Positions 38,971-58,978 of a stretch of DNA of 64,000 nt are shown here, in pieces; the first letter of the stretch is position 1, and each line of letters starts with the position of its first letter. The DNA comes from Pseudomonas asplenii. GTDB taxonomy: Bacteria; Pseudomonadota; Gammaproteobacteria; Pseudomonadales; Pseudomonadaceae. The translations under genes were made by a program, and so were the position numbers. Under the pieces are notes generated by a model, which was given only the letters and a program-made list of their open reading frames with translations, was not told the origin of the DNA and searched no databases. The DNA lies in NCBI RefSeq assembly GCF_900105475.1, contig NZ_LT629777.1, positions 2,108,001-2,172,000 of the forward strand, in the 5' to 3' direction.

Positions 38971-40190
38971 TGAGCGATATTATCCGGCGCGACCCGCGCG
39001 CCGAGCGGATCGCCCGCAACCGGCTGCATCCGCTGCACGCGGCGATGCAGCCGGTACAACACAGCTGGATGGGGCCTAACGGGATCATCCGCAAGAATCT
39101 CCATGGCGTCGGTTTCATCGGCCCCAACGGCATCAAGCGTATCGACCGCAGCGGCGCCCAGCAGGGCGGCGCGACCAAGCGTTCGGCCAGCGTCGAGGTG
39201 CAATTGCCGCTGCATCAGGTGGTGCAGCCGGCGTTCCACATCTGTGTGGTGCCGGACATGGTCGGTGGCCGCTTGAGCAGCCACGACCGCGATCTGCTCG
39301 GCCTGGCCCATCAGTTGGCGGGCAAGGACGGTGCGGTACTGGCCGTGGTCTTTGGCGAACACAAGGAAAGCACTTTCGAGACCGCTGGCGTCGATCGCCT
39401 GCTGGTGCTTGAAGGCGACGAGTTCAGTGGTTATTCACCGGAGCAAAGGGTCCAGGGCCTGCGGGCTGTGGATAACCAGTTCAGTCCGCGCCACTGGTTG
39501 CTGCCGGACAGCCGCAGCGGCGGTGGGGAACTGGGCCGGCGCTTTGCCGCGAGCCTGGGTGAACGGCCGGCCACGCGGGTCTGGCAGGTCAAGGACGGCG
39601 AGTGCATCGGCCGTGCCGGCGCCGGCCTGCAGGATTTGGCGCGGCCGTTGGCGAGGCTGATCCTGGCGGCTGCCGAATGTGCCGAATCGGTCAGCGAAAC
39701 CCGTCACGAAGCCTTGCCCGTGGAGTTATCCACAAGTGTCGTGCGCAGTCTGCCACGCATCGAGGATCTTGGCGCGGTGGCGGTCGACCCGGCGGCGATT
39801 CCCATGGCCGAGGCCGAGTTCATTTTCTCCGGCGGCAACGGCGTTCAGGACTGGTCGCTGTTCCACGAGACGGCGGCGGCCCTGGGCGCCACCGAAGGCG
39901 CGTCGCGGGTGGCGGTGGACGATGGCTTCATGAGCCGCGATCGGCAGGTCGGGGCCAGCGGTACCTGGGTCACGGCGCGGGTCTATGTCGCCGTGGGGAT
40001 TTCCGGGGCGATCCAGCACCTGCAAGGCATCGGTGCCTGCGACAAGGTAGTGGCGATCAACCTTGATCCGGGTTGCGACATGATCAAGCGTGCCGACCTG
40101 TCGGTGATTGGCGACAGCAACGAGATCTGCCGTGCACTGATCGCCGCAGTGACGGCATATCGCAATGGCGCCAAGCGCGATGCGGCCTAA
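38970..40190 (+). CDS. Electron transfer flavoprotein alpha subunit (betaine cluster)
   Basis: 406 aa, ETF-alpha family. The C-terminal FAD-binding block reads RQVGASGTWVTARVYVAVGISGAIQHLQGIGACDKVVAINLDPGCDMIKRADLSVIGD. The N-terminal about 75 residues are an extra basic stretch not seen in housekeeping EtfA. It is coupled to dgcB (TGATG). It corresponds to PA5400 and most likely accepts electrons from dimethylglycine/sarcosine oxidation. Confidence 0.9.
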   Translation: MSDIIRRDPRAERIARNRLHPLHAAMQPVQHSWMGPNGIIRKNLHGVGFIGPNGIKRIDRSGAQQGGATKRSASVEVQLPLHQVVQPAFHICVVPDMVGGRLSSHDRDLLGLAHQLAGKDGAVLAVVFGEHKESTFETAGVDRLLVLEGDEFSGYSPEQRVQGLRAVDNQFSPRHWLLPDSRSGGGELGRRFAASLGERPATRVWQVKDGECIGRAGAGLQDLARPLARLILAAAECAESVSETRHEALPVELSTSVVRSLPRIEDLGAVAVDPAAIPMAEAEFIFSGGNGVQDWSLFHETAAALGATEGASRVAVDDGFMSRDRQVGASGTWVTARVYVAVGISGAIQHLQGIGACDKVVAINLDPGCDMIKRADLSVIGDSNEICRALIAAVTAYRNGAKRDAA

Positions 40191-45343: not shown

Positions 45344-46958
45344 GATGGACCTCCTGCAAGGTGGTCTGGCCGGCGGCAGCGCTCGCCAGGGCAATATCGC
45401 GCATGAAGCGGTGGCCCGATTCGCGCGCCAGTTCGCGCAGGGCGGCGGCCGAGCGGCGTTGCAGCAGGCCCTCCTTGAGCGTGTCGGTGACGCTCAGCAC
45501 CTCGGCCAGCGCCAACCGGCCGCGATAGCCGGTCTGGCGGCAGGCCTCGCAGCCCCGGCCGACCCGGTAGTGGCTGTCGGGTGCGTCGGCCGGCAGGTGG
45601 GCCAGTCGCAGCAGCTGCGCGTCCGGCTCGCAGGGTTCGGCACATTCGCTGCACACCCGGCGCAGCAGTCGTTGCGCGACCACGCCGTTGAGCGCCTCGA
45701 CGAAGCTGGCCGGCTCCACCTTCAGGTAATTGAAACGCTCCAGTACGCTGAAGGCGCTGTTGGCGTGTACCGAGGACAGCACCAGGTGGCCGGTGAGGGC
45801 AGCCTGCACGGCGATCCCGGCGGTTTCGCCGTCGCGGATCTCGCCCACCAGGATGGTGTCCGGGTCGTGCCGCAGGATCGAGCGCAGGCCTCGGGCGAAG
45901 GTCAGGCCCTTCTTGTCGTTGACCGGGATCTGCAGCACGCCGGGCAGTTCGTACTCCACCGGGTCTTCGATGGTGATGATTTTCTTCTCGCCGGTATTGG
46001 TCTCCGACAGGGCGGCATAGAGTGTCGTCGACTTGCCGCTGCCGGTGGGCCCGGTGACCAGCAGCATGCCGTAGGGCTCGCTGGCCAGCAGGCGGATACG
46101 GCCGATCGCGTCCGCGTCCAGGCCCAGGCTGTCGAGGCTCAGGGACTCGCCGCGCTGGGATTTGTCCAACACCCGCAACACCGCATCCTCGCCGTGGATG
46201 CTGGGCATGATCGAAACCCGGAAGTCGACGTCGCGTTGCTGGATACGCGCCTTGAAGCGACCGTCCTGGGGTACCCGGCGTTCGCCGATGTCCAGGCCGG
46301 AGAGCACCTTGAGCCGTGACAGCGCCTGTTCGGCGGTGTCGAGCCCGGCGCTCTGACCGATCTGCTGCAGCACACCATCGATCCGGTACTTGATCACCAG
46401 ACCTTCGGGGGTGCTCTCGACGTGGATATCGCTGGCCCGGCTCTGCAGGGCATCGAAGAGCATCGAGTTGACCAGCCGCACCACCGGATTGTCATCGCGG
46501 GCGATGCTGCTCAGGGAGATTTCCTCGACGGCCTCGGCCACCCGTGCGTCTTCGTCGTCGCGGGCGAATGGGTCCATCACCCGCTGGCTGGCCTCGGCCT
46601 TTTTCAACTGCGCCTCGACTACCCCCGGCAGGCTCATCGCCAGGGTCATCGGCGCCAGTTCGGCATGGGCCTGCAGCCATTGGCGGGCACTCAGGGAGAA
46701 GGGTGCGCCGAGCACCAGGTAGCCCTGGCCGTCGATCTCCACCGGCAGGGTCTGGCGCGCCAGGGCCTGGGGCAGGGAGAGCGTGGTGAAAGATTCGCGA
46801 CCCTCGAGCTGGGCCTCGGTAAGGGGCATCAGGCCAAGCAGGGCGGCGACGTCGGCCAGATGTTCCGGCGACTGCGCCAGCACCTGTTGCAGGTGTTCCG
46901 ACAACGGTCGGTTGTCCTGCCGTGCCTGCTGCTGCCATTGCTGTCTGAGTGTATCCAT
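45324..46958 (-). CDS. gspE: GspE-type assembly ATPase
   Basis: 544 aa. N1 domain about 1-150, then an N2E region, Walker A TGPTGSGKSTTLYAAL (about 300), Asp box TIEDPVEYELPGVLQIPV, Walker B LRHDPDTILVGEIRD, His box TGHLVLSSVHANSA, and the C2 zinc tetracysteine as CSEC...CEAC (about 440-485). It powers pseudopilus growth. ATG at 46958 with AGGGG upstream, 4 bp after gspF. Confidence 0.92.
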   Translation of the reverse strand: MDTLRQQWQQQARQDNRPLSEHLQQVLAQSPEHLADVAALLGLMPLTEAQLEGRESFTTLSLPQALARQTLPVEIDGQGYLVLGAPFSLSARQWLQAHAELAPMTLAMSLPGVVEAQLKKAEASQRVMDPFARDDEDARVAEAVEEISLSSIARDDNPVVRLVNSMLFDALQSRASDIHVESTPEGLVIKYRIDGVLQQIGQSAGLDTAEQALSRLKVLSGLDIGERRVPQDGRFKARIQQRDVDFRVSIMPSIHGEDAVLRVLDKSQRGESLSLDSLGLDADAIGRIRLLASEPYGMLLVTGPTGSGKSTTLYAALSETNTGEKKIITIEDPVEYELPGVLQIPVNDKKGLTFARGLRSILRHDPDTILVGEIRDGETAGIAVQAALTGHLVLSSVHANSAFSVLERFNYLKVEPASFVEALNGVVAQRLLRRVCSECAEPCEPDAQLLRLAHLPADAPDSHYRVGRGCEACRQTGYRGRLALAEVLSVTDTLKEGLLQRRSAAALRELARESGHRFMRDIALASAAAGQTTLQEVHRVLSLY

Positions 46959-46962
46959 CGTG

Positions 46963-48141
46963 CTACCCCTGGATGGATCCGGCCAGTTCGAAGATCGGCA
47001 TGTACAGCAGGAACACGATCAGCCCGATCAAGCCGCCGACCACCAGCATCAGCAGCGGCTCGAAGACCTTGCTGAACAGCTCGATGGCACGCTCCAGCGC
47101 TTCGTCGTGAAACTGCGCGATACGCTCGCACATGGCCGCCAGTTCGCCGCTCTGCTCGCCCACACGCAGCAGGCGCTCGGCCACCGGGGTGGTGAGCCGG
47201 TGCCGGGTGAGGGTGGCCGACAGCGGCTGGCCGGCGCGAATATCGCTGAGGCTGCGGTTCAGGTCGCCCTGGCGTTCGGCCGGTAGCAGGGCCCCGGCCA
47301 TTTCCACCGCCGACACCGCCGGCATCCCGCCCATCAGCAGCATGCCGGCGGTGCGGTAGAAGCGCGCGAGAATGAACAGTGTGCGCTGGGCACCGAGGCT
47401 GGGGATTTTCCACAGCAGGGCCGCCAACTGTTGCCTGACCGTCGCGGTGCGTACCAGCAGCACCAGCGCGGCGACCACTCCCGCCAGGGCGCCCATCAGC
47501 AGGCCGCCGTGGCGTTCCACCAATTCGCCCCACCAGACCATGAAACGCGCAGTCGCCGGCAGGTCGCTCATCGCGTCGAAGACCGAGGCGAAGCGCGGGA
47601 TCACGAAGAACAACAGGAACAGCAGGATCACCGCGCCCACGCCGAGCACCACCAGCGGATACATCAATGCGCTGCTGACGCGCTTCTTCACGGTTTCCAG
47701 ATGGGCTTCGAAATGATGGTAACGGCGCAGCGCCACCGATAGCTGCCCGCTGTGTTCGGAGGAAGCGGCGGTCGCCACCAGCAGGTTGGGAAAGATCGCT
47801 GGCCTGGCCTGCATCGCCCGGGAAAAGGCGTGGCCCTGGTACATCGACTCCAGCAGCTCGCTCAACACCTGCCGGTTGATCCCCGGCGCAGCCTTGTCGC
47901 GCAGGGTTTCCACCGATTCCACCAGCACCAGCCCGGCGTCGAGCAGCACCACCAATTCCTGAATGAACAGGCCGAGGGCGAAACGTGCTCCACGACCCGG
48001 CCAGGTGAGCGAGGCGCGTGGGCGCAGCGAGACCACCTGGGCGTCCTGCAACTGGCGCCGGGCATCATCGAGGTCGACGGCCTGCAGGCGCAGGTGGCGA
48101 AACTGGCCGTGGCTGACGATACGGGCATCGAACGTCTTCAT
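46963..48141 (-). CDS. gspF: GspF-type inner-membrane platform protein
   Basis: 392 aa with two T2SSF domains (about 75-190 and 270-385) and three transmembrane helices (about 170-192, 225-245 and 360-385). The segments GLFIQELVVLLDAGL and ARFYRTAGMLLMGGMPAVSAVEMAG are the paired F-domain starts. The start is ATG at 48141, overlapping the transglycosylase stop by 4 bp (ATGA). Confidence 0.9.
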   Translation of the reverse strand: MKTFDARIVSHGQFRHLRLQAVDLDDARRQLQDAQVVSLRPRASLTWPGRGARFALGLFIQELVVLLDAGLVLVESVETLRDKAAPGINRQVLSELLESMYQGHAFSRAMQARPAIFPNLLVATAASSEHSGQLSVALRRYHHFEAHLETVKKRVSSALMYPLVVLGVGAVILLFLLFFVIPRFASVFDAMSDLPATARFMVWWGELVERHGGLLMGALAGVVAALVLLVRTATVRQQLAALLWKIPSLGAQRTLFILARFYRTAGMLLMGGMPAVSAVEMAGALLPAERQGDLNRSLSDIRAGQPLSATLTRHRLTTPVAERLLRVGEQSGELAAMCERIAQFHDEALERAIELFSKVFEPLLMLVVGGLIGLIVFLLYMPIFELAGSIQG

Positions 48142-48632
48142 GGCCGCGCACCGTTGCCCGAGGCCAATGCGCGCGCGCCGCGTTGGCGCAGTTGCAGCAG
48201 GCTGGCGTAGTAGCCCCATACCCGCCTTGCGTAGCGGTCGCGGTTGGCGTCGCGCTCGGCACGGGCCCCGGCGTTGTAGGCGCCCACGGCTTGCCAGCCG
48301 TAACCCAGTTGCTGGACGAACTGGGCGAGAATCCAGGCCCCGGCCATGACACTGGTGCACGGTTCGTCGAGCAGGTTCTGTTCGCCAATGCCAAAGGCGG
48401 CCAGGCGTCCCAGGTGACGGCTGTTGATCTGCATCAGGCCGATGTCGTGACTGCCATCACGGTTGGTGTTGCGGGCCCGGGGATCGAGCCCGGACTCGAC
48501 CTGAGCGATGGCGTAGAGCAGCAGGGGATCGATACGGTAGCGCTCGCCGGCGTCCTGGAAACAGTTGGCGGCGCTGGCTCCCGCCGTGAGGAGGGCGCCA
48601 AGGACGACCGGCAGTGCGAATGAGTGGCGCAT
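48138..48632 (-). CDS. Lytic transglycosylase, SLT domain, within secretion operon
   Basis: 164 aa with signal peptide (MRHSFALPVVLGALLTAGASA) and a single SLT domain: CFQDAGERYRIDPLLLYAIAQVESGLDPRA (catalytic Glu in VESG), IGLMQINSRHL, and GYGWQAVGAYNAG. This is the IagB/VirB1/PilT-type specialised family that opens peptidoglycan for machinery assembly. ATG at 48632 behind GGAGG. It lies between gspG and gspF, coupled to gspF. Confidence 0.9.
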   Translation of the reverse strand: MRHSFALPVVLGALLTAGASAANCFQDAGERYRIDPLLLYAIAQVESGLDPRARNTNRDGSHDIGLMQINSRHLGRLAAFGIGEQNLLDEPCTSVMAGAWILAQFVQQLGYGWQAVGAYNAGARAERDANRDRYARRVWGYYASLLQLRQRGARALASGNGARP

Positions 48633-48649
48633 GGGCAGGGCCTCCGGGC

Positions 48650-49096
48650 TCAGAAGCCATACACGATGTCGGCGTTGGTGCCGTCACCTGCGGCCTTGCC
48701 ATCGCGGCCCAGCGAGATGATCTCGACCTCATGACCGGCGCCGGGGTTCTTGAACAGATAGGGATTGTTCCAGGGGTCGGGCGGCACGCCCTTGGACAGG
48801 TACGGTCCATGCCAGGCGGGTTCGCTGGCGGGCCGTTCGATCAGCACGTTGAGGCCCTGGGCCTCGCTGGGGTAGTGACCATTGTCCAGGCGGTACTGGT
48901 TCAGGGCATCGGCCAGGGATTTCATCTGGCCCTTGGCGGTCTGGACTTTCGCCAGTTCCAGGCGGTCGAACATCTTCGGCCCGACGTAGCCGGCCAGCAG
49001 AGCGATGATCAGCAGGACCACCAGCAATTCGAGCAGGGTGAAGCCGCTGGCGCAGGGGCGGATGTGGGGATGCCGACGTGACGAGAATGCCTTCAT
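48650..49096 (-). CDS. gspG: Major pseudopilin GspG
   Basis: 148 aa. The prepilin site lies in CASGFTLLELLVVLLIIALLAG (cleavage G/F, Glu5). It has the T2SG C-terminal domain with YRLDNGHYPSEAQGLNVLIERP, DPWNNPYLF, and the calcium-site-like end GKAAGDGTNADIVYGF. It is the main pseudopilus subunit and needs a PilD/GspO peptidase from elsewhere. It lies 17 bp upstream of the transglycosylase gene and 269 bp after the LPMO stop. Confidence 0.92.
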   Translation of the reverse strand: MKAFSSRRHPHIRPCASGFTLLELLVVLLIIALLAGYVGPKMFDRLELAKVQTAKGQMKSLADALNQYRLDNGHYPSEAQGLNVLIERPASEPAWHGPYLSKGVPPDPWNNPYLFKNPGAGHEVEIISLGRDGKAAGDGTNADIVYGF

Positions 49097-49324
49097 GGGT
49101 GCGGCCCATTGCTGGGGACAAGGAACGTGGTTACTTCATAACCCATTCCGGCCCGACATCAGGTGGGCACCACCGGCAGGTACACGTTGAACATGTCTCG
49201 GGGTGAATGACTGACTGTAACTCTAGTTCAATACCCCCGAGGGCAAGGAGCGCAGGGTTATATCTCTTTACTATTAGGTCGCGTGTTTCCTGCAAGGGAG
49301 ACGCATAACCGAGAGCACCGGCGG

Positions 49325-49355
49325 GATAACGCCGCACAGCCTGTGCGGCGTTATC
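49325..49355 (-). terminator. Hairpin after the LPMO gene
   Basis: A perfect 14-bp stem, GATAACGCCGCACA (49325-49338) with TGTGCGGCGTTATC (49342-49355), loop of 3. It begins 10 bp past the LPMO stop. The U-tract is poor, so it may only attenuate and let some transcription continue into gspG. Confidence 0.55.
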
Positions 49356-49365
49356 ACTCACTGCC

Positions 49366-50931
49366 CTAGAGCTTGTCCCAGGCCTCCTGCCAATGCACGC
49401 CGGTGCCAGGGGCATAGGCCCAGGCCGCGCCCTTGCACCAGCCGGTGGCCGGCCAGGGTTTGCATTTGTAGTTGGCGCCGGCATTGGTGACGATCTCGCC
49501 GGCCCCGTACTCGGTGCCTTCCACGTACTGCGGATAATCGCCACCGCCGGACTCCGGCCTGGCGGTCAGTGTCACCTGTGCCTCGTGGCGTTTCTTGTTG
49601 GTGTCATCGTAGACATTGAGCCGCAGCGTCGCCGTCGAGAGCTTGTCGCTGGGCGCTGTGGTAATGGTGAAGGTCGGGTCGGTGCTCGATCCGTAGGTCC
49701 AGTCGCCTCCGCCCTGGAACGACCAGGCATAGAGCAGTGGCGTGTTGTTGTAGGACACGGATTTCCTGCCATCCAGGACGAAACGCTCACCAGCCTTGAT
49801 CTCGGTGCGCCCTTCGATCACCGCCACGGGCGGACGTTCATCCACCGGACCTGGGTTCTCGCCACCGCCTCCAGAGTCGACGGACATCTGCGTGGAGTCC
49901 CTGGCATCGAGCAGGTAGTTGTAGTTGCTGTAGATGTTGGTGGGATCGAACGTGATGGTTTCGTTCTTTTTGACGCCGACACGAATGATGTGCTGGCTAT
50001 TGCTCAGTTGGTTTACCAACTGCGCCCCCCACACCCTGGGATTCTGGTTGCTGGCGGTGATGGGCAGTTTCAGGTCGACCAGTTCACTGACCGCGCGGTC
50101 ATGTCCGAATACGCGAAAGTGCACCGTATCACCGGGTTCCGGATTGATCCCGTTGCCGTCGATAAACACCTTTTCCTTGGTCCAGGGGGAGGGTTGGGTC
50201 TTGTCGTCGAAGACGATATCGCTGCAGCCGTAGAAACCTTCACCGACCGGATCCCGACGTTGCCAGCGGGTGACGAGTACGGCATTCCCATGGCGACCAG
50301 GAGGGATCTGCACCTTGAGCAGAAAGAAACTGTTGGGGTCCGAGATGATCGGGGCGGGGGCCCAATCCTTGCGGACATCGGTCAGTTCCTCGGTGTGAAT
50401 CAGTTCCAGGTCCTCCCACTTCAGTTGACGGGTCGCGCTGTCATAGTCGGGCTTGCTGAGGTAGATCTTGATGAAACTGGGTATATGGGGCTGGGTGGTG
50501 GCCAGGCGCACAGTGATCTTGCCCGCAGTATCGGGCGTGACCTTGGTCTTGGTCCACTGCGGCATGACCTTGTTGAACACATCCATCCCCGGGCGGTTTG
50601 CCGAGCAGATCTTGCCGTTGGGCACGACCTCCCTGACGGCAGCGTCGCCGTTGTCCGGATCCGCATAGCGACCACCGATGTTCGCGCTGACCTCATGCCA
50701 TTGATTGATCCCGTGCACCAATTGTCCAGGTTGTTCGGTCTTGGCTTGGCGGCAACCCTCGTCCTTCATCTGTTCGGCAGAGCCGTTGAAGTCCTGGAAA
50801 CTTCGGCACATGACCTGGCGTGTCGGGGGCGTTTCCACCGCCCCATGACCCCAGCCCAGCACGGGTATTGCCATTAGCGTCGCCAGAGCACAGCGGATGA
50901 TCGGGTGTGCGCAGAAATGTAAGCTGTTCAT
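49366..50931 (-). CDS. AA10 lytic polysaccharide monooxygenase with chitin-binding modules
   Basis: 521 aa. Signal peptide to residue 28, so the mature protein begins with His29 (HGAVETPP), the copper histidine-brace residue; the second brace His is probably His149 (ATTQPHIPSF) and axial Phe233 lies in EGFYGCSDIVF. Then come a GbpA-like module (about 255-350), a Gly/Pro linker, a PKD-like domain (about 375-450) and a C-terminal CBM5/12 (YGAGEIVTNAGANYKCKPWPATGWCKGAAW). It oxidatively cuts chitin (or cellulose) outside the cell. P. aeruginosa's LPMO CbpD leaves by a T2SS; this gene is embedded in a T2SS-like cluster. ATG at 50931, weak ribosome site. Confidence 0.92.
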   Translation of the reverse strand: MNSLHFCAHPIIRCALATLMAIPVLGWGHGAVETPPTRQVMCRSFQDFNGSAEQMKDEGCRQAKTEQPGQLVHGINQWHEVSANIGGRYADPDNGDAAVREVVPNGKICSANRPGMDVFNKVMPQWTKTKVTPDTAGKITVRLATTQPHIPSFIKIYLSKPDYDSATRQLKWEDLELIHTEELTDVRKDWAPAPIISDPNSFFLLKVQIPPGRHGNAVLVTRWQRRDPVGEGFYGCSDIVFDDKTQPSPWTKEKVFIDGNGINPEPGDTVHFRVFGHDRAVSELVDLKLPITASNQNPRVWGAQLVNQLSNSQHIIRVGVKKNETITFDPTNIYSNYNYLLDARDSTQMSVDSGGGGENPGPVDERPPVAVIEGRTEIKAGERFVLDGRKSVSYNNTPLLYAWSFQGGGDWTYGSSTDPTFTITTAPSDKLSTATLRLNVYDDTNKKRHEAQVTLTARPESGGGDYPQYVEGTEYGAGEIVTNAGANYKCKPWPATGWCKGAAWAYAPGTGVHWQEAWDKL

Positions 50932-51040
50932 TGTTCAACCCACGTTCAAGTTGGAAGAAACGTTCCGAACCGTTCGGAACCTTGGCTTTTCACTTAACGA
51001 CTGGCTTGATCACCAGACATGCCCACCTCCCACGTAGCCT

Positions 51041-51538
51041 CTACGTTCTTTTTGGAGGGTTACTCTGTCCAGGCCGGTACAGAAACTGCCAACCCTGATA
51101 ACTGCCTTGCCCGGTGAAACTCTCCTGGTGCTGACGAAAGTTGCCTTGCTTGAGGGGTTGTCCCGCAGCCTGGCTGAACACGCCCATGATGGTTTCGCCG
51201 GGACCGGGGATGATTCCCCAATTGGCCGATCCGCTCAGCGGGTCGGGGTAGACCCGGCGCAAATAGCGCTTGAGCGTCGGTTGGCGGCGATCCAGCAGCA
51301 GGTCCTCGAGCGTCTTGGGGTACTGTCGAGACTGTGACTCGTAGTACAGGCCGATGGCCCGACGGATTTCCTCGCCCTGGGCCAGCAGTTGCGCTTCGCG
51401 CTCGCGGCGCAGCCGGGTCGACCAGAGCACGCCGACCTCCATCAGCAGCACGGCAACGATGGCCACCGAGACCAGCAGGCCCATGAACACCGAGCCGCGC
51501 TGCGCTGTTCGTCGGCACCGACGGTTACCAGCTGCCAT
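51041..51538 (-). CDS. Atypical small pseudopilin lacking Glu5
   Basis: 165 aa. An N-terminal basic stretch (MAAGNRRCRRTAQRG) precedes SVFMGLLVSVAIVAVLLMEVGVLW, a pilin-like helix whose +5 residue after the putative Gly cleavage point is Gly, not Glu. The C-terminal part has pseudopilin-like features (YPKTLEDLLLDRR, RRVYPDPLSGSANWGIIP). Missing Glu5 is also a GspK trait, suggesting a tip role. The start ATG at 51538 overlaps the upstream pilin gene by 14 bp. Confidence 0.72.
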   Translation of the reverse strand: MAAGNRRCRRTAQRGSVFMGLLVSVAIVAVLLMEVGVLWSTRLRREREAQLLAQGEEIRRAIGLYYESQSRQYPKTLEDLLLDRRQPTLKRYLRRVYPDPLSGSANWGIIPGPGETIMGVFSQAAGQPLKQGNFRQHQESFTGQGSYQGWQFLYRPGQSNPPKRT

Positions 51539-51908
51539 AGTCGCTGCCATCCACCGCGCGGCCGGGAGCGCCGCTGTGTACATCGCCGAACCCGCTGTCC
51601 TCGCTGCGCTGCAACTGCCAGGTATCGCGCCGGCCGGTGATCGGGTCGCGGGGGATCTCGCGCAGATAGTGGCCGTTGACCAGCTCTTCCAGGGTCTCGG
51701 GGTTGTTGCCCTTGTCTTCGCGGTAGTGATCCAGTGCCTGACGGATCGACACCAGGTTATGGCGCAACACGGTTTCCTGGGCCTTGGTGTGCTGGCGAAA
51801 ATACTGCGGCATGACCAGGGTCATCAGCGTCGCGATAATGGCCATCACCACCAGCAGCTCGATCAGGGTAAAACCGCCGGCCTTACCATTGGTTGTATGG
51901 AATGCCAT
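51525..51908 (-). CDS. Small GspG-like pseudopilin (second in set)
   Basis: 127 aa. The prepilin site is NGKAGGFTLIELLVVMAIIATLMTLVMPQYF (Glu5 present), then GspG-type HYREDKGNNPETLEELVNGHYLREIPRDPITGRRDTW. ATG at 51908; the first 26 bp overlap the gene upstream and the last 14 bp overlap the gene downstream, so translation of the three is coupled. Confidence 0.82.
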   Translation of the reverse strand: MAFHTTNGKAGGFTLIELLVVMAIIATLMTLVMPQYFRQHTKAQETVLRHNLVSIRQALDHYREDKGNNPETLEELVNGHYLREIPRDPITGRRDTWQLQRSEDSGFGDVHSGAPGRAVDGSDYGSW

Positions 51909-52389
51909 TGAGGCCCTCCCGCTGGCTGCTGGAGCGGATATCGAAGACGTCTTCGCCTTCGGCCGGGTCCTCGGCGCTGCTCTTGTAGCTGCGCAGGCGC
52001 CAGGTTGCTTCGGCGGAGAGGTTCGGGCATTCGCAGACCGGATCGCGTGGAATACGCCGCAGGAAGAAGATCTTCCGGCCGCCCGGGTCGCTGCGGTCGA
52101 CCACACCTTCGACCAGGCTTTGCAGAGTGGGCGGATAACCGTTGGTGATTCCCTTGTCGATCCGGCCGTCGTCGGTGGCTTCCTTGTAGGCATCGATGGC
52201 ACGGCGGATTTCCCGCAACGAGCGTTGCAGGTCGAGTTCACGTTCGCGTTTGCCCACCAGGGCGGTCAGCGGATAGGCCACCGTTGCCAGGGTTGCCAGC
52301 AAGGCCAGGGTCAGCAGCAACTCGATCAGGGTGAAGCCGGCTGCGGATGGGCGGCGAAGCGCTAGGGAAAATAGCGGGAGCGGCCACAT
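51883..52389 (-). CDS. GspG-like pseudopilin, first gene of the secretion cluster
   Basis: 168 aa. The prepilin site is RPSAAGFTLIELLLTLALLATLATVAYPL (Glu5 present), followed by IRRAIDAYKEATDDGRIDKGITNGYPPTLQSLVEGVVDRSDPGGRKIFFLRRIPRDPVCECPN. The start is taken as ATG at 52389 (MWPLPLFSLALRR); the ribosome site is weak and the frame runs on to 52551 through unlikely sequence. The promoter should lie in the array region upstream. Confidence 0.82.
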   Translation of the reverse strand: MWPLPLFSLALRRPSAAGFTLIELLLTLALLATLATVAYPLTALVGKRERELDLQRSLREIRRAIDAYKEATDDGRIDKGITNGYPPTLQSLVEGVVDRSDPGGRKIFFLRRIPRDPVCECPNLSAEATWRLRSYKSSAEDPAEGEDVFDIRSSSQREGLNGIPYNQW

Positions 52390-52556
52390 GGAGATCGCAC
52401 CATCGGGAGGTCCTCGGGTAAATGCGTCAGGCCAAGACACCTTTACTGCAAGAACATGGCGCGCTGTGGGAGAAGTGTAGTTGATAGTTCGAGGATGCCA
52501 GGCGAGCCGCTTGTAATCGTCAGGTCTGGTTGTTCGCGGATACATGTCCACAGAGA

Positions 52557-53185
52557 CTGTTGGTGGCTCTGTGGATAAGTTGTTCGTGCATTGCTGAATC
52601 CCTTGCAGATTAACGGCTGTAGCCCGCAGTATGAAAAGTGATCAAGCTAACTGACGGTTTTTTCTGAGGTTTTAATGTGGATAAGCCTCAGTCAGAGGAC
52701 GGCGTGGTGCTCGACTTGTCAACAAACTCTGTTGGCGATTATGTGGATAAGTTGTTTGCTATCCGCTACAGGCCTTATTTTACAGGGTCTGCAAGTGATT
52801 GATCAAAAAACACCCAATTGTGCCTTTTTCTTCCATGCATGCGCCTGAACGCTTCAGGGAGCGCGCTTTTCGCGGGTTTTCCACAGATTCCCAGAAAAGG
52901 CTGCGAGTTGCACACAAAGTCTGTTGGCGTTTCTGTGGATAAGGTGTTCGCGTTCCTCTAGGGCCCTTTATTTACCTGGTCTACAAGGTTTAGATCAAAA
53001 AACGATCAATCCTTGCTGAAACTGGCCTTTCTGAATAAGTCACGGATTTTATTCAGTTTCTTTGGGCGTCGAAGGGGCTGAATCGTTAGTTGCCCACATT
53101 TGCTGTGGGTGGCTCTGTGGATAAAGTGTTCGCTAAGTGCCGAGAGCCCCGATTTCTAAAGTGCAGGGAGCTATAGATCAAATTT
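52557..53185 (+). repeat. Four-unit DnaA-box repeat array (origin-like or DnaA-titration locus)
   Basis: Imperfect units start with CTGTTGGYG or CTGTGGGTG at 52557, 52729, 52921 and 53103 (periods 172, 192 and 182 bp). Each has the perfect DnaA box TGTGGATAA exactly 13 bp after its start: 52570-52578, 52742-52750, 52934-52942 and 53116-53124, all in one orientation. An AT-rich GATCAAA element lies 59, 59 and 60 bp from the start of boxes 2-4 (52801, 52993, 53176); unit 1 has GATCAAG at +70. A fifth box is at 52676-52684 and an opposite-strand near-match (TTTTCCACA) at 52877-52885. The region from 52390 to 53566 holds no convincing gene. No dnaA, rpmH, parAB or gidA is adjacent. Confidence 0.85.
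53031..53056. other. Inverted repeat within the DnaA-box array
   Basis: CTGAATAA (53031-53038) and TTATTCAG (53049-53056) form a perfect 8-bp inverted repeat with a 10-nt spacer, between the third GATCAAA element and unit 4. It could be a protein-binding site or a hairpin. Confidence 0.45.
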
Positions 53186-53566
53186 CGTACAGTTCTAAAG
53201 TCCTTTATTGACACACTCTGGGCTGCGGTCTTCACTCAGGACACAAGGACAGAACGTCGTCGGCATCCATGCCAGGTTCAGGGAGAGCGCTTTATGGATC
53301 CCCATTTGCCTTACCGCTTGTTGCAAACCCCCATCCCCCATTCCCTGACCAGGCGACTGAGCCTGATGCACGGGCGTGTTTATCGTGATACCTCCCACCC
53401 GCGTGTTCGCCTGTAGCGCCTGAATCGTTCTGCACGCCATTGCGCCCCTGTTCCGCATGCCCGGATTGTCTGGAGAACCTGTGTGCGCGTTTGCCTGTAG
53501 CACCACCGTCTGCCCCGTAGAGGCAACCGCAGAGTTGTCCGACTTAGCCCGATAGAGGAAATAACC

Positions 53567-56500
53567 ATGACACGGATTTCGACACCCATCAGTGAGATCA
53601 AGGAACGCTACGACGTCATTGTCATCGGTTCCGGTTATGGCGGCGGTATCGCCGCCTCGCGACTGTCCCGCGCCGGAAGAAGCGTCTGCCTGCTGGAGCG
53701 CGGTCGGGAGATCCAGCCGGGGGAATATCCCAATACCCTGGTGGCGGCCACCGAGCAGTTGCAGGTCCATGACCCGGATGGGCATATCGGTTCGCGCACC
53801 GGCCTCTACGACCTGCACGTCAATGCGCAGCAGAACGTGGTGGTCGGTTGCGGCCTGGGCGGTACCTCGTTGATCAATGCCAACGTGTCCCTGGAGCCGG
53901 AGCCCGAAGTGTTCGATGACCCGCGCTGGCCCCAGGCGGTGCGTGAACATCGCGACACGCTGCTCGCCCAGGGGTATGCACGGGCCCGCGAGATGCTCAA
54001 GCCCAACCCCTATCCCTCTTCCGCGCCGCGATTGGACAAGCTGGAAGCCAATCGCAAGTCGGCGGATTACCTGCAGGAAAAAGCGCATTTCTATACGCCG
54101 CCGATCAATGTCACTTTCGATCCGCTGCCCGCCAATCTCAACCACGTCGGTGTCGAGCAACTGCCGTGCAACCACTGCGGTGACTGCGTTTCGGGCTGTA
54201 ACAACAAGGCCAAGAACACCACGCTGATGAACTACCTGCCGGATGCCTGGAACCATGGTGCGGAAATTTTCTGCCAGGCCGAGGTCCGTCACCTGGAACG
54301 CGATGGCGATGGCTGGATCGTGCACTTCCAGTACCTGGACAGTGGTCGCGAGAAATTCTCGGCGCCGACCCTGTTCGTCCGGGCCGAGATCGTCGTGTTG
54401 TCCGCCGGCACCCTGGGCTCGACGGAGATCCTGCTGCGTTCGCGCAACAAGGGCCTGACCCTGTCTGACCAGTTGGGCGAACACATGAGCGGCAATGGCG
54501 ACATTCTCGGTTTCGGCCATAACTGCGGGCAGACCATCAACGGCATCGGCTTCGGTACTCACTCGGCCAAGGACCTGCAGCCGGTCGGTCCCTGTATCAC
54601 CTCGATCATCGACTTGCGCACCAGCGGCGACTGGCGCAGCCGCATGGTGATCGAAGAGGGCTCGATCCCGGGCGCGCTGGGGCGGGCCATGGTGCCAGCG
54701 ATGGCCGGCTTCGCCGAACTGATCGGCGAGGCGAGCGAGAAGGGCGTCAGCGCCGAACTGCACTACAAGGCCCGCGAGGCCGAGAGTTTCCTGCGTGGCC
54801 CGTACTATGGCGCGCTGCACAACATGCAAACCTACCTGATCATGAGCCATGACAACGGCAAGGGGCGCATGGTGCTTGATGCCCAGGACCAGTTGCGCAT
54901 CGACTGGCCGGGTGTTGGCGAGCAGGAGAACGTCAAGCTGGGCAATGAGCGCCTGCACCAGTCGACCAAGGCTCTGGGCGGCGTCTGGGTGCCGAACCCG
55001 ATCTGGACCAGGCTGCTCAAGCACAGCATCGTCTCGGTGCATCCGCTGGGTGGCTGTGTGATGGGCGAGGACGCCGGGCAGGGCGTGGTCAACCACAAGG
55101 GGCAGGTGTTCAGTGGGGCCAGTGGCAGCGAGGTGTACCCTGGTTTGTACGTGGCCGATGGCGCGGTGATCCCGACGTCGCTGGCGGTCAATCCGTTGCT
55201 GACCATTTCCGCAGTCAGCGAGCGCAACATGAGTCTGCTGGCGGCCGATCGCGGTTGGCTCATCGACTACAGCCTGCCTTCGGCGCCGCGCAAACCGGTA
55301 CCGGCACCGACCCTCGGCGTGCAGTTCACCGAGACCATGAAGGGCTATTTTTCCCGGGATTTCACCCAGCCCCAGGGCACCGACCTCAAGGTCTACGAGG
55401 CTGCGGCGAAAAGCGGCGAGGCGCAGAACTCACCCATCGAGTTCACCCTGACCATCACGGCGGGTGATCTCGACCGGTTGATCAACCAGCCCGGCCACGC
55501 CGCAACCCTGGTCGGCACCGTCGATGCTCCGGCGCTGTCGCCGCATCCGCTGACCGCCAGCAATGGGGTGTTCAACCTGTTCGAGCAGTATGAGCAGCAG
55601 GTTGGCGTACGGCACATGAACTACGACATGAAGCTGACCGCCGAGGATGGCCGCGACTATTACTTCAGCGCCTTCAAGAGTGTTCCCGAGGATCATGGCC
55701 TGCTCAATATCTGGCCGGATACCAGCACCCTCTATGTCACCCTCTTCCAGGGCACGGACAAGACCGGCCCGGTGATCGGTTCGGGCGTCATGCACATCGA
55801 GCCCGCCGACTTCGCCAAACAGATGACCACCATGAAGGTGCTCAACGCGCGCAACGAGCGCGAGCGGATTGACGCACTGGCGCGTTTCGGCAAGTTCTTC
55901 GCCGGGATACTCTGGGAAAGTTACGGCGGGGTCTTTGCCGGCGATATCTACTTCAACCCGGATGCGCCGCCACGGCACAAGCGCCCGCTGGATGCACCGG
56001 TGCCAACCGTGCATTTCTTCGAAACCGAAGACCAGGTGCAATTACGCCTCACCCGCTACCAGGCTGGCCGCAAGGGCCCGGTGATGCTGGTACACGGCCT
56101 GGGGGTGGGGTCGAACATTTTCTCCACCGATACCATCCAGACCAACCTGCTGGAGTATCTGTGCAAGCATGACTATGACGTCTGGCTGCTGGATTTCCGT
56201 GTCAGCATCCTGCTGCCGGCGAGCAAGCAGGAATGCAACGGCGACCAGATCGCCCAGTACGATTTCAAGGCGGCCATCGCACAGATCCGCGAGGCCACCG
56301 GGGCCCTCGATGTGCAATGCGTGGTGCACTGCTACGGCGCCACGACCTTCTTCATGTCCCTGCTGGCGGGGCTGCAGGGTGTGCGCTCGGTGGTCTGCTC
56401 GCAGATCGCCGCTGACACGGTGGTGGCCACGGCGACCGGAATCAAGGCCGGCCTGCACCTGCCGGGTGTGCTCGATACGGTGGGGATCAAGTCGCTGACC

Positions 56501-57019
56501 GCCTATGCAGACAGCAAGGAAAGCTGGTTCAACAAACTGTATGACAAGGCCCTGGATGTCTATGCGCGGGTCGAGGCCCAGGGCTACTGCACCAACCCGG
56601 TCTGTCACCGGATCACCTTCATGTATGCCTCGCTGTATCGGCACGACACCCTCAACGAAACCCTGCACGACAACCTGCACGAACTGTTCGGCGAGTCGAA
56701 TATCCAGACCTTCGAGCACCTGGCGCTGATCTGCCGCAAGGGGCACTTGGTGGACTTCAAGGGCCACGATGTCTACATGCCGCATTTCGACCGCCTGGAT
56801 CTGCCGATCTGCTTCATCAGCGGTGCCGACAATCAGTGCTACCTGCCAGAGAGCACCGAGAAGACCTACGAGCGCCTGGTGCAGATGCACGGACCGCAGT
56901 TGTACAGCCGGCACGTGGTGCCCGGGTACGGCCATATCGATTGCATGTTCGGCAAGGACGCGGTGGTCGATGTGTATCCGTTGATACTCGCGCACCTGGA
57001 GAAAACCGCGCTGGGCTGA
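53567..57019 (+). CDS. GMC oxidoreductase fused to an alpha/beta hydrolase (1150 aa)
   Basis: The N-terminal half (about 1-570) is a cholesterol-oxidase-like GMC enzyme: FAD fold YDVIVIGSGYGGGIAASRL, GCGLGGTSLINANV, and tail SIVSVHPLGGCVMG...GLYVADGAVIPTSLAVNPLLTISAVSERN. It carries a C201-x2-C204-x2-C207-x3-C211 cluster of ferredoxin type. A beta-rich linker domain (about 590-790) resembles nothing I can name. The C-terminal alpha/beta hydrolase (about 820-1150) has Cys922 at the nucleophile elbow (VVHCYGATT), with candidate acid Asp in SGADNQ and His in PGYGHIDCM. There is no signal peptide. It heads a plus-strand three-gene set. The substrate is unknown, possibly a lipid or sterol-like alcohol/ester. 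Confidence 0.85.
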   Translation: MTRISTPISEIKERYDVIVIGSGYGGGIAASRLSRAGRSVCLLERGREIQPGEYPNTLVAATEQLQVHDPDGHIGSRTGLYDLHVNAQQNVVVGCGLGGTSLINANVSLEPEPEVFDDPRWPQAVREHRDTLLAQGYARAREMLKPNPYPSSAPRLDKLEANRKSADYLQEKAHFYTPPINVTFDPLPANLNHVGVEQLPCNHCGDCVSGCNNKAKNTTLMNYLPDAWNHGAEIFCQAEVRHLERDGDGWIVHFQYLDSGREKFSAPTLFVRAEIVVLSAGTLGSTEILLRSRNKGLTLSDQLGEHMSGNGDILGFGHNCGQTINGIGFGTHSAKDLQPVGPCITSIIDLRTSGDWRSRMVIEEGSIPGALGRAMVPAMAGFAELIGEASEKGVSAELHYKAREAESFLRGPYYGALHNMQTYLIMSHDNGKGRMVLDAQDQLRIDWPGVGEQENVKLGNERLHQSTKALGGVWVPNPIWTRLLKHSIVSVHPLGGCVMGEDAGQGVVNHKGQVFSGASGSEVYPGLYVADGAVIPTSLAVNPLLTISAVSERNMSLLAADRGWLIDYSLPSAPRKPVPAPTLGVQFTETMKGYFSRDFTQPQGTDLKVYEAAAKSGEAQNSPIEFTLTITAGDLDRLINQPGHAATLVGTVDAPALSPHPLTASNGVFNLFEQYEQQVGVRHMNYDMKLTAEDGRDYYFSAFKSVPEDHGLLNIWPDTSTLYVTLFQGTDKTGPVIGSGVMHIEPADFAKQMTTMKVLNARNERERIDALARFGKFFAGILWESYGGVFAGDIYFNPDAPPRHKRPLDAPVPTVHFFETEDQVQLRLTRYQAGRKGPVMLVHGLGVGSNIFSTDTIQTNLLEYLCKHDYDVWLLDFRVSILLPASKQECNGDQIAQYDFKAAIAQIREATGALDVQCVVHCYGATTFFMSLLAGLQGVRSVVCSQIAADTVVATATGIKAGLHLPGVLDTVGIKSLTAYADSKESWFNKLYDKALDVYARVEAQGYCTNPVCHRITFMYASLYRHDTLNETLHDNLHELFGESNIQTFEHLALICRKGHLVDFKGHDVYMPHFDRLDLPICFISGADNQCYLPESTEKTYERLVQMHGPQLYSRHVVPGYGHIDCMFGKDAVVDVYPLILAHLEKTALG

Positions 57020-57109
57020 TCAGCCCTTTCTGAATACGCCATCGAACCTGCAGGAGCAGGATGGGGCTGCGGTGCCTCGATAGAAATGGATTTGCAGTTA
57101 GAGGGTGAT

Positions 57110-58978
57110 ATGGACAATTACATTCGCTGGTACCAACGCTTCATCTGGCTGGGCATCGTGATGAACATGCTGTTCGCACTGCCGGCCCTGTTCGCTCCGG
57201 CCATGCTGACCTCGGTGGTCGGCCTGCCGCCGGTGCTGTCGGACCCCTGGCTGGAAAACGCCGGCATGCTGCTGGTGGGCATCAGCCTGTTCTACATGCC
57301 GTCGGGCTTCAACGCCCGGCGCTTTCCGATCAACTCCTGGCTCTGTGTCCTGAGCCGGTTGATCGCCGTGGCGTTCTGGATCTACCTGATCCAGACCAGC
57401 ACCACACCGTCGGTGTTCGTGCCAATGCTCTATGGCGACCTGAGCATGTTCCTGCTGCTGGGCATCACGCTGTACCTGGGCAGCCCGCCAGCCACTCGGC
57501 CGTGGGCGCTGCTGGTCGATGGCTGGCACGCCTGGTGTCACGGCTGGTCGGTGCGCTGGCAGCGCCACAGCTTCCGGGTCGGCTTGCTGATCACTGTGCT
57601 GGTCGTGGGTTTCATCGGCTACCAGAGCTGGTACAACATGTTGCGGGTGGTGCCCGAGGAAAAATTCGCCGCCGACGAGGATCACTTCAAGTACGCCGCC
57701 ATTGGCTTGGGGATCGAGGCGCGAATTCCCTACTACCTGTTTTCCGTACTGCCACAGATGTGCCCGGAAAAAATGCCCAGGCCAGGTGGCTGGGAAGCCT
57801 TCGGTTTTCTCTATGAGAACGGCCGTGACCTGCCCATCGGCATGGCCAGGCGGCAGATCGGCTATCCGACCGTCGAGCCCAACTGCGCCCTGTGTCACAC
57901 CGGTTCCTATCGCGCCTCGGCCAGCGACGTTGCCCGACCACTCGTCACGGCGCCGGCCAACACCCTGCAGTTACAGGCCTTCCAGTGGTTCGCCTACGAC
58001 TGTGCCAGCGATCCGAAATTCACCACCGATGCGGTGATGGCGGCGATCAATGCCAAGTTTCAGCTGGGCTTTTTCGAGAAGTTGTACAACCGCTATCTGA
58101 TCATGCCGATGGCCCGAAATGCGCTGCTCAAGCAGAAGCAGGCGTACGCCTGGCAGAAACTGCGGCCGGCCCAAGGCCCGGGGCGTACCGACACCTTCAA
58201 CCCGACCAAGATGGTGGTGTTCGGCTTCCCGGACGACTCGACCATCGGCACCGTCGATCTGCCGCAGATCTGGAACCAGAAACCGCGCGAGTCGCTGTAC
58301 CTGCACTGGGACGGCAATAACAACAATATCCACGAGCGCAACTACGCGGCGGCCATGGCCGTAGGGGCGACGCCACAGTCGGTGTTGCCGCAGAGTTTCA
58401 ACCGGGTCACCAATTGGCTGCTCGGCACCCAGCCACCGGCCTGGCCATTCCCCCTCGATCAGGCGCGGGTGGCCCAGGGCAAGCCGCTCTGGGATAAGAA
58501 TTGCGCCGGTTGCCATGCGTTCGGCAAGGCCGACACCGGCCAGGTCACGGTACCTATCGACACCCTGGGTACCGACCCGCATCGCTTGAACTCGTTCACC
58601 ACCGGCCTGGTCCAGGCGTTCCACGACTTCAAGAAACCGCCGTTCGATTTCAGTGCCTATCGCAAGACCCAGAGCTACAGCAATACCCCCACCGACGGCA
58701 TCTGGATGCGCGCGCCGTACCTGCACAACGGTTCGGTACCGAGCCTGTGGGACCTGCTGCAGACCCCGGCCAAGCGCCCGCAGACCTTCAGCACCGGCTC
58801 GGATGTCTACGATCCGATCAAGGTCGGCTTCGTCACCAGCGGAGCGCCGGTCCAGGCGCCGAGCTACTTCAAGTACGACACCCGCCTGGAGGGCAACCAC
58901 AACGGTGGTCACCTGTACGGGACACAACTGAGCGACGCCGAGAAATGGGCGTTGATCGAATTCATGAAGACGTTATAG
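57110..58978 (+). CDS. Membrane-anchored di-haem cytochrome c
   Basis: 622 aa. Four or five hydrophobic helices fill about residues 8-130 and one more lies at about 155-180. A periplasmic part follows with two haem c motifs, C259-x2-C262-H263 (CALCH) and C465-x2-C468-H469 (CAGCH), and the family phrase RAPYLHNGSVPSLWDLL near the end, as in di-haem cytochrome c peroxidase/RoxA-like proteins. ATG at 57110 directly behind GAGGGTGAT; eight earlier codons are rejected. It lies 90 bp after the GMC fusion gene, so it is the likely electron acceptor or a partner oxidase. Confidence 0.82.
   Translation: MDNYIRWYQRFIWLGIVMNMLFALPALFAPAMLTSVVGLPPVLSDPWLENAGMLLVGISLFYMPSGFNARRFPINSWLCVLSRLIAVAFWIYLIQTSTTPSVFVPMLYGDLSMFLLLGITLYLGSPPATRPWALLVDGWHAWCHGWSVRWQRHSFRVGLLITVLVVGFIGYQSWYNMLRVVPEEKFAADEDHFKYAAIGLGIEARIPYYLFSVLPQMCPEKMPRPGGWEAFGFLYENGRDLPIGMARRQIGYPTVEPNCALCHTGSYRASASDVARPLVTAPANTLQLQAFQWFAYDCASDPKFTTDAVMAAINAKFQLGFFEKLYNRYLIMPMARNALLKQKQAYAWQKLRPAQGPGRTDTFNPTKMVVFGFPDDSTIGTVDLPQIWNQKPRESLYLHWDGNNNNIHERNYAAAMAVGATPQSVLPQSFNRVTNWLLGTQPPAWPFPLDQARVAQGKPLWDKNCAGCHAFGKADTGQVTVPIDTLGTDPHRLNSFTTGLVQAFHDFKKPPFDFSAYRKTQSYSNTPTDGIWMRAPYLHNGSVPSLWDLLQTPAKRPQTFSTGSDVYDPIKVGFVTSGAPVQAPSYFKYDTRLEGNHNGGHLYGTQLSDAEKWALIEFMKTL

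What the first reader, a model, noticed from the sequence alone, without database searches (positions are those of the whole stretch)
52557..53185. Tandem array of DnaA boxes with phased GATCAAA elements: cryptic origin or datA-like sink
Four degenerate repeats each put a perfect DnaA box exactly 13 bp after a CTGTTGGYG-type start. Three also carry GATCAAA(A) 59-60 bp beyond the box; GATC-initiated AT-rich elements recall oriC 13-mers. A fifth box has the same orientation. The recurring geometry argues against chance. Origin-linked genes (dnaA, rpmH, parAB, gidA) are absent, so this may be a DnaA-titration/reactivation site, a second origin, or a remnant of an integrated replicon in the accessory island.
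Basis: seen in the sequence. Interest (0 to 1): 0.75.

Follow-up and report, generated by a model that had tools for sequence, protein, structure and literature searches.

The report
Tandem DnaA-reactivation (DARS-like) array, Pseudomonas
A stretch of non-coding DNA about half a million bases from the replication origin of a Pseudomonas holds four evenly phased copies of a landing site for DnaA, the protein that starts chromosome copying, each paired with a likely site for the DNA-bending protein Fis; it is shared by most of the genus and looks like a multi-copy version of the E. coli sites that recharge DnaA.

Summary
52544-53190 holds four tandem units, each with one perfect TTATCCACA box, plus two more DnaA boxes between units. 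GATCAAA is not an oriC 13-mer but half of a 15-bp Fis-type core lying 59/60 bp after the box, in 596 of 610 unit-like boxes. Upstream lie two degenerate DnaA boxes, one opposed, at 14- and 12-bp spacing: the box I-II-III layout of E. coli DARS cores. L290, from another family, has it with three perfect boxes.

155 of 199 genus genomes have a match. The array lies 357-662 kb from dnaA in 38 of 39 genomes, always with one polarity to the fork. In 50 dereplicated four-unit arrays all 150 spacings fit a 10.67-bp helical grid. Separate DARS-core loci carry the Fis-type core at the same offset (19 of 20) and lie mid-replichore in 12 of 13 genomes.

Best reading: an IHF-free, Fis-dependent, four-copy DARS-type locus that reloads DnaA. 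Main rival: a datA-like sink, because the position is datA-like. A cryptic origin or plasmid remnant is not supported. All function is inferred.

The parts
52544..52552 (+). unit 1 box I (ATGTCCACA), degenerate, opposed
   Evidence: 26 bp before the strong box; box-I similarity peaks at -26 in 151 representatives, mostly of the genus (5.83/8, background 2.21)
52558..52566 (-). unit 1 box II (TGTTGGTGG), very degenerate
   Evidence: 12 bp before the strong box; this position is a perfect box in L290
52570..52578 (-). unit 1 box III, perfect TTATCCACA
52629..52643 (.). unit 1 Fis-type core GTATGAAAAGTGATC
   Evidence: +59 from box III
52676..52684 (-). extra perfect DnaA box with no box I/II or Fis core; a box at +106 from box 1 recurs in many relatives
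52716..52724 (+). unit 2 box I (TTGTCAACA)
52730..52738 (-). unit 2 box II (TGTTGGCGA)
52742..52750 (-). unit 2 box III, perfect TTATCCACA
52801..52815 (.). unit 2 Fis-type core GATCAAAAAACACCC
   Evidence: +59
52877..52885 (+). extra opposed DnaA box TTTTCCACA between units 2 and 3
52908..52916 (+). unit 3 box I (TTGCACACA)
52922..52930 (-). unit 3 box II (TGTTGGCGT)
52934..52942 (-). unit 3 box III, perfect TTATCCACA
52993..53007 (.). unit 3 Fis-type core GATCAAAAAACGATC
   Evidence: +59
53090..53098 (+). unit 4 box I (TTGCCCACA)
53104..53112 (-). unit 4 box II (TGTGGGTGG)
53116..53124 (-). unit 4 box III, perfect TTATCCACA
53176..53190 (.). unit 4 Fis-type core GATCAAATTTCGTAC
   Evidence: +60

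Best explanation
The locus is a non-coding DnaA-control site made of four tandem DARS-type units. Each unit is an opposed box I, box II 14 bp on, a strong box III 12 bp further on, and a Fis-type site about 50 bp after box III. Inferred mechanism: ADP-DnaA assembles on each I-II-III core, with a head-to-head contact between I and II. Fis bound at +59 bends the DNA so that the core can release ADP; no IHF bend is needed because the Fis site is close. The cores sit on one face of the helix over about 550 bp, so four assemblies can act together. Apo-DnaA is released, binds ATP and helps the next initiation, most strongly in fast growth when Fis is abundant. Shown: the anatomy, its phasing in the genus, conservation, position and polarity, and a Fis ortholog in the genome. 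Inferred: DnaA and Fis binding, nucleotide exchange, direction of effect.
For: Box I-like sequence peaks at -26 in both sets, and box II-like at -12 in other genera. Mean identity to the E. coli DARS1 core is 20.3/35 (151 representatives, mostly of the genus) and 20.7/35 (41 from other genera) in this register, against backgrounds of 8.8 and 8.5, sd 1.9; the best unit has 28/35. The window units have 20, 21, 18 and 23 of 35. L290, from another family, has three perfect boxes at 14/12 spacing and a Fis-type core at +60 from box III. The Fis-type core is at +59/60 in 596 of 610 selected boxes, against a mean of 1.5 at other offsets. Separate DARS-core loci carry it at +72 from II, which is +60 from III, in 19 of 20 loci; such cores lie at 0.47-0.63 of the replichore in 12 of 13 genomes. 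Helical grid. Fis ortholog, 59% identity over 76 residues. The 14/12 spacing with box I opposed: the review PMC5742627 (passages) states that DARS1 and DARS2 share one spacing with box I opposed; the numbers are read from MG1655. Fis and helical phase matter at E. coli DARS2 (PMC4245941, passages).
Against: Position is datA-like: median 0.164 of the replichore. E. coli datA lies near oriC and the DARS sites further out, and a DARS1 moved beside oriC raises origin number (PMC5010248, passages). Box II is very degenerate in this genus and not among the five best offsets there. For DARS2 the alternative register (-14) scores the same (16.4 against 16.4; 18.0 against 17.6). IHF, required at E. coli DARS2, has no site shared by the units: 33 near-matches in 150 spacers against 19.8 +/- 4.8 shuffled, at most 10 of 150 at one offset (+50, overlapping the Fis-type core). 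Neither E. coli DARS1 nor DARS2 has a Fis-type core near +60 from box III. The second DARS core in L290 has its Fis-type core at +87, not +60. Outside the genus several spacings, such as 112, 124, 168 and 188 bp, leave the grid. No binding or activity data.
Confidence: 0.55

Rival explanations
1. datA-like sink: several strong, directly repeated boxes near oriC, brought together by a bending protein (Fis in place of IHF), titrate DnaA or stimulate hydrolysis of DnaA-bound ATP soon after the array is duplicated, preventing re-initiation.
For: Near-origin position, 357-662 kb in 38 of 39 genomes. In E. coli datA two strong boxes are 162 bp apart in the same orientation with an IHF consensus 65 bp after the first, close to the 161-bp class here with Fis at +59. 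datA too has an opposed box pair (TTATTCACA and TGTGGATGA, 12 bp apart). High density of consensus boxes. The genome already has a separate DARS core mid-replichore.
Against: The 14/12 triple is a DARS feature and was not seen in datA; the same triple plus Fis at +60 is found at separate DARS-core loci (19 of 20). No IHF site shared by the units. One matching spacing in one E. coli locus is weak evidence.
Confidence: 0.28
2. Passive titration or nucleoid-architecture site: DnaA and Fis fold the region but do not change DnaA's nucleotide state.
For: Helical phasing and regular bends fit an architectural complex. Boxes are dense around dnaA in this genome: 38 of 136 TTATCCACA lie in 73 kb.
Against: Simple titration needs no fixed +59 Fis site, no 14/12 triple and no polarity relative to the fork.
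Confidence: 0.12
3. Cryptic second origin or remnant of an integrated replicon.
Against: The GATC elements fit Fis-type cores; a box cluster lies next to dnaA; no clear skew switch; orthologous position in most of the genus; no replication gene among the 9 proteins scanned with Pfam (not every window gene was scanned).
Confidence: 0.03
4. Promoter or leader region controlled by DnaA for the neighbouring genes.
For: Intergenic position upstream of a GMC oxidoreductase gene.
Against: Flanking genes differ between genomes on both sides (ORFs by eye; one example of each type confirmed by Pfam) while the array stays. One promoter-like match, as in shuffles (1 against a mean of 1.0).
Confidence: 0.02

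Closest known systems
DARS2 (DnaA-reactivating sequence 2) of E. coli
   Same: Core of three DnaA boxes, I opposed to II and III, 14/12 bp; one perfect and two degenerate boxes; Fis involved; intergenic
   Different: Four tandem copies here; strong box is III, not II; Fis-type core about 50 bp from the core; no shared IHF site; much nearer oriC. The side on which E. coli's required Fis sites lie was not worked out here
DARS1 of E. coli
   Same: Core layout; 18-23 of 35 identities for the window units, up to 28/35 in relatives
   Different: DARS1 is single, and no Fis-type core lies near +60 of its box III
datA of E. coli
   Same: Near oriC; strong direct boxes about 160 bp apart with a bending-protein site between them; an opposed box pair
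   Different: IHF rather than Fis; no 14/12 triple; no set of four like units
Separate DARS-core loci of the same genus and order (G000:C1:3160210; L270-L289)
   Same: I-14-II-12-III plus Fis-type core at +60 from III in 19 of 20
   Different: Single copy, strong I and II with weaker III, upstream of a DUF1232 gene in L272, about half-way to the terminus in 12 of 13 genomes
DnaA-box clusters of Bacillus subtilis (mentioned in PMC5010248, passage)
   Same: Chromosomal clusters that restrain initiation
   Different: Not compared here; no Fis in that lineage (recalled)

Membership tests
DARS | Three DnaA boxes, I opposed to II and III, spacing 14 and 12 | tested here: met
   All four window units by position; boxes I and II degenerate; similarity scan peaks at -26 (both sets) and -12 (other genera only)
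DARS | Core sequence similarity to E. coli DARS1/DARS2 | tested here: met
   DARS1: 20.3/35 and 20.7/35 against backgrounds of 8.8 and 8.5. DARS2: register ambiguous
DARS | Stimulates ADP release from ADP-DnaA | not testable with these tools
   needs biochemistry
DARS2 | Fis site required for activity | tested here: inconclusive
   Fis-type core present in all four units; binding and need untested
DARS2 | IHF site required for activity | tested here: not met
   No IHF consensus shared by the units; at most 10 of 150 spacers have one at the same offset. So not filed as a DARS2 homologue, only as DARS-type
DARS | Mid-replichore position | tested here: not met
   0.123-0.341 of the replichore, median 0.164, 39 genomes
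datA | Near oriC | tested here: met
datA | IHF site between essential DnaA boxes | tested here: not met
datA | Stimulates DnaA-ATP hydrolysis | not testable with these tools
   needs biochemistry
oriC | Adjacent to dnaA/rpmH with skew switch and unwinding element | tested here: not met
   dnaA is 549 kb away; no clear skew switch in 36-64 kb; rpmH and unwinding element not tested

The most novel reading that the evidence does not exclude
Pseudomonadaceae control DnaA with a multi-copy, helically phased, IHF-independent DARS array near the origin, in addition to a single DARS half-way to the terminus. Fis alone would set its activity, linking growth rate to DnaA reloading just after the origin region is copied, or switching the same cores between reloading and hydrolysis as the locus is duplicated.
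Probability: 0.4. Interest if true: 0.8.

Novelty: new variant of a known kind. Interest (0 to 1): 0.66.

Why it matters
Control of replication initiation by sites outside oriC is worked out mainly in E. coli. A locus kept through most of a large genus, with nearly fixed position, polarity, helical phase and Fis offset, gives a directly testable second model. It could separate what is essential to a DARS (the I-II-III core) from what varies (IHF, copy number, position), show that E. coli's IHF requirement need not be general, and test whether the position of such sites is selected.

Tried and rejected
RNA hairpin: the stretch +24 to +52 after the box looks like an inverted repeat (CTRCARGCC/GGCYTGYAG), but no pair on that axis covaries beyond shuffles and Rfam gives no match. 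Rejected as RNA; its conservation is unexplained. The same call's scan of other axes had its largest excess at sum 110, which I did not examine. oriC 13-mers: rejected, see Fis. IHF sites: a modest overall excess, no site shared by the units. Leader or promoter: rejected by changing neighbours. A first class-wide pattern was faulty: its gap range left out the commonest spacings and the own genome gave no match, so its 0 of 369 is void. The corrected pattern matched 2 of 274 genomes, own and G718. The consensus pattern had no match in the window within 3 mismatches; even the window's own units differ too much from it.

Selection to bear in mind: one search chose units by TGTT after the box, so that TGTT's conservation is circular. 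One search chose by Fis at +59/60, so only the upstream boxes are tested there; its larger set also holds the named records and other loci outside the genus. One search kept only four-unit arrays with spacings of 120-210 bp (127 found, 50 after dereplication). One search used 39 genomes; of the 50 handles searched for dnaA, 12 were dropped because one search listed no array place for them, and its list of DARS-core positions left out two usable genomes, added. The relaxed Fis core is wider than the printed consensus GnnYAnnnnnTRnnC, which 239 of 610 units meet. Against strict phasing, 22 of the 463 spacings lie more than 1.5 bp off the grid, and with each length counted once the periodicity test is weaker (resultant 0.476 at 10.80 bp, p 0.0015).

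Full report
Observation. Five perfect TTATCCACA boxes lie on the minus strand at 52570, 52676, 52742, 52934 and 53116, and one TTTTCCACA on the plus strand at 52877. In the 64-kb window TTWTNCACA has 9 matches against a shuffled mean of 1.35, and 6 of the 9 lie here. In the whole chromosome (one contig of 6,529,536 bases; window at 2,108,001-2,172,000) direct box pairs 159-189 bp apart occur only in this array (2 matches, reversed-pattern control 0).

Conservation. The 701-bp region finds relatives in 155 of 199 genomes drawn from the genus, own included. Identity is 74-78% in the nearest and 64-70% in many others, yet the boxes stay. In L001-L008 the distances are 106-107, 66, 192-193 and 182-183 bp. 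Of the 20 non-matching genomes that one search lists (24 more are not listed), 15 are of 5.3 Mb or less. One search looked at 13 strings printed, picked because their units looked diverged; 10 of the 13 carry the Fis-type core at +59, among them G008, G113, G118 and G147, which have no match. So some non-matches are diverged units rather than losses; three strings (G346, G146, G382) lack the motif. The contig of L008 has the length of Pseudomonas agarici LMG 2112 NZ_FOAR01000021.1. The species of the window was not determined.

The Fis-type core. GATCAAA is one half of a 15-bp motif GNNYRN5YRNNC. Among 1441 distinct box contexts in the 236 loci then held, 610 have TGTT just after the box. Of these, 596 carry the motif at exactly +59 (461) or +60 (135), with a mean of 1.5 at other offsets (maximum 41, at -35). 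The stricter consensus GnnYAnnnnnTRnnC, as printed in PMC10380432 and PMC8682772 (passages), is met by 200 plus 39. In other genera of the family the motif is again at +59 or +60 in most array units; the 30 genomes were chosen because they had a box pair, and the pairs in g5, g6 and g10 lack the motif. The genome has a Fis ortholog (59% identity over 76 residues, E 1e-24). That Fis binds here is inferred.

The core. Two further conserved stretches lie upstream: TTRCCCMCA at -26 and TGTTGGCG/TGTGGGTGG at -12. Scanning all offsets, DnaA-box likeness on the plus strand peaks at -26 both in 151 representatives, mostly of the genus (5.83 of 8, background 2.21, sd 0.79), and in 41 representatives of other genera (5.90, background 2.07). 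On the minus strand -12 is the second-best offset in the other genera (5.02) but not among the best five in the genus. Thus I (opposed), II and III sit 14 and 12 bp apart. E. coli DARS1, read from MG1655, is TTATCCACT-TGTGGATAA-TGTGTATTA at 14/12. The review PMC5742627 (passages) states that DARS1 and DARS2 share one spacing, with box I opposed to II and III. Identity to the DARS1 core in this register averages 20.3/35 and 20.7/35 against 8.8 and 8.5; the best unit has 28/35. For DARS2 the register with the strong box as box II scores equally.

Two kinds of locus settle the register for me. L290, from a genome of another family in the class, has TTATCCACA, TGTGGATAA and TGTGGATAA at 14/12, with the Fis-type core at +60 from the third box; a second 14/12 core in the same contig has it at +87 instead. 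And separate cores matching TTATCC-N8-TGTGGATAAC, found in 38 of 57 relatives (35 of 36 in the genus), carry the Fis-type core at +72 from II, that is +60 from III, in 19 of the 20 loci held (box I is imperfect in one, L280). They lie at 0.47-0.63 of the replichore in 12 of 13 genomes with known dnaA; G029 is the exception. E. coli DARS1 and DARS2 themselves show no Fis-type core near +60, so this offset is a feature of this lineage, not of DARS in general.

Helical phase. Over 180 distinct arrays and 463 spacings the lengths have a period of 10.65 bp (resultant 0.89; maximum over 2000 uniform draws 0.17); with each length counted once the result is weaker (0.476 at 10.80 bp, p 0.0015). In 50 dereplicated four-unit arrays, from loci mostly of the genus, every one of 150 spacings lies within 1.34 bp of a 10.67-bp grid, and none of 300 random sets of distinct lengths was as tight. 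Related genomes are not independent, but the steps themselves (128, 139, 150, 161, 172, 182, 193) suggest that spacers change length by whole turns. Across all 463 spacings 22 lie more than 1.5 bp off this grid, and off-grid lengths are seen in other genera (168 in g9, 124 in g12, 187-188 in g15, 112 in g18), so strict phasing is shown for the genus only. The four units are orthologous between species (0.63-0.69 identity for the same unit, 0.47-0.65 between different units), with no sign of homogenisation within a genome.

Position and polarity. The dnaA domain is at 1,611,709-1,612,191 in this genome, so the array is 549 kb away. In 39 genomes the distance is 357-662 kb in 38 (G029: 1116 kb), median 530 kb or 0.164 of the replichore. 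33 are on one arm and 6 on the other, and in all 39 the units read in the direction of fork movement. Much of this is inherited gene order and not independent evidence. Neighbours change: an ETF gene or pseudopilin-like genes on one side, a GMC oxidoreductase or a Rieske oxygenase gene on the other (ORFs by eye; one example of each by Pfam). In the window the ETF genes end at 40976 and the array starts at 52544. The genes seen in between (46.4-52.5 kb) include type II secretion proteins and an LPMO-like protein; 41-46 kb was not examined. In L030 the ETF frame ends about 50 bp before the first box, and in L002 about 640 bp before it.

Function. Sequence says DARS; position says datA. E. coli datA, read from MG1655, has two strong direct boxes 162 bp apart with an IHF consensus 65 bp after the first, and an opposed box 12 bp after the second; one loop of this array resembles that, with Fis for IHF. 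At E. coli DARS2, Fis and IHF are required, and 5-bp shifts hurt more than 10-bp shifts (PMC4245941, passages). No IHF site shared by the units was found here: 33 near-matches in 150 spacers against 19.8 +/- 4.8 in shuffles, at most 10 at one offset. I commit to a Fis-dependent DARS-type array at 0.55, a datA-type sink at 0.28 and an architectural or titration site at 0.12. These are judgements, not computed probabilities; the checks made for this final version did not change them.

Literature. Searches of the held open-access library listed no paper that by title or start of abstract concerns DARS or datA sites in Pseudomonas; most listed papers were not opened. Seven papers, seen as passages only, were searched for the word Pseudomonas without a hit. 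Most subscription papers are not held, and the founding DARS paper could not be opened, so absence from print is not claimed.

Noticed in passing
G000:C1:3160210-3160234 (L272) and relatives L273-L289: A separate near-palindromic DARS-type core (perfect boxes I and II 14 bp apart, TGTGAACAG at +12, Fis-type core at +60 from it) about half-way to the terminus, upstream of a DUF1232 gene in L272.
   Followed up: partly
G000:C1:1577218-1650486: 38 of the chromosome's 136 TTATCCACA boxes lie in 73 kb around dnaA; box accumulation toward the origin is described for E. coli and Salmonella in PMC12371093 (passages).
   Followed up: no
L290 (genome G718, another family): Two 14/12 triples of DnaA boxes 380 bp apart, one with three perfect boxes, in an AT-rich gammaproteobacterial contig.
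   Followed up: partly
unit positions +24 to +52 after each strong box: A conserved inverted repeat (CTRCARGCC / GGCYTGYAG) without covariation; purpose unknown.
   Followed up: partly
window 39467 and 39726: Two opposed perfect DnaA boxes 259 bp apart inside the frame 38970-40190 next to the ETF gene; a pair with the same spacing recurs near the array in many relatives.
   Followed up: partly
window 46400-52551: Type II secretion genes and an LPMO/GbpA-like gene lie between the ETF genes and the array in this species.
   Followed up: partly
window 53567-57019: A 1150-aa fusion of a GMC oxidoreductase with an alpha/beta hydrolase, followed by a RoxA-like cytochrome c protein gene (57086-58978).
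   Followed up: no
G029: The one genome with the array far from dnaA (1116 kb) also has its DARS core close to it (178 kb), suggesting a large rearrangement; a natural test of position effects.
   Followed up: no
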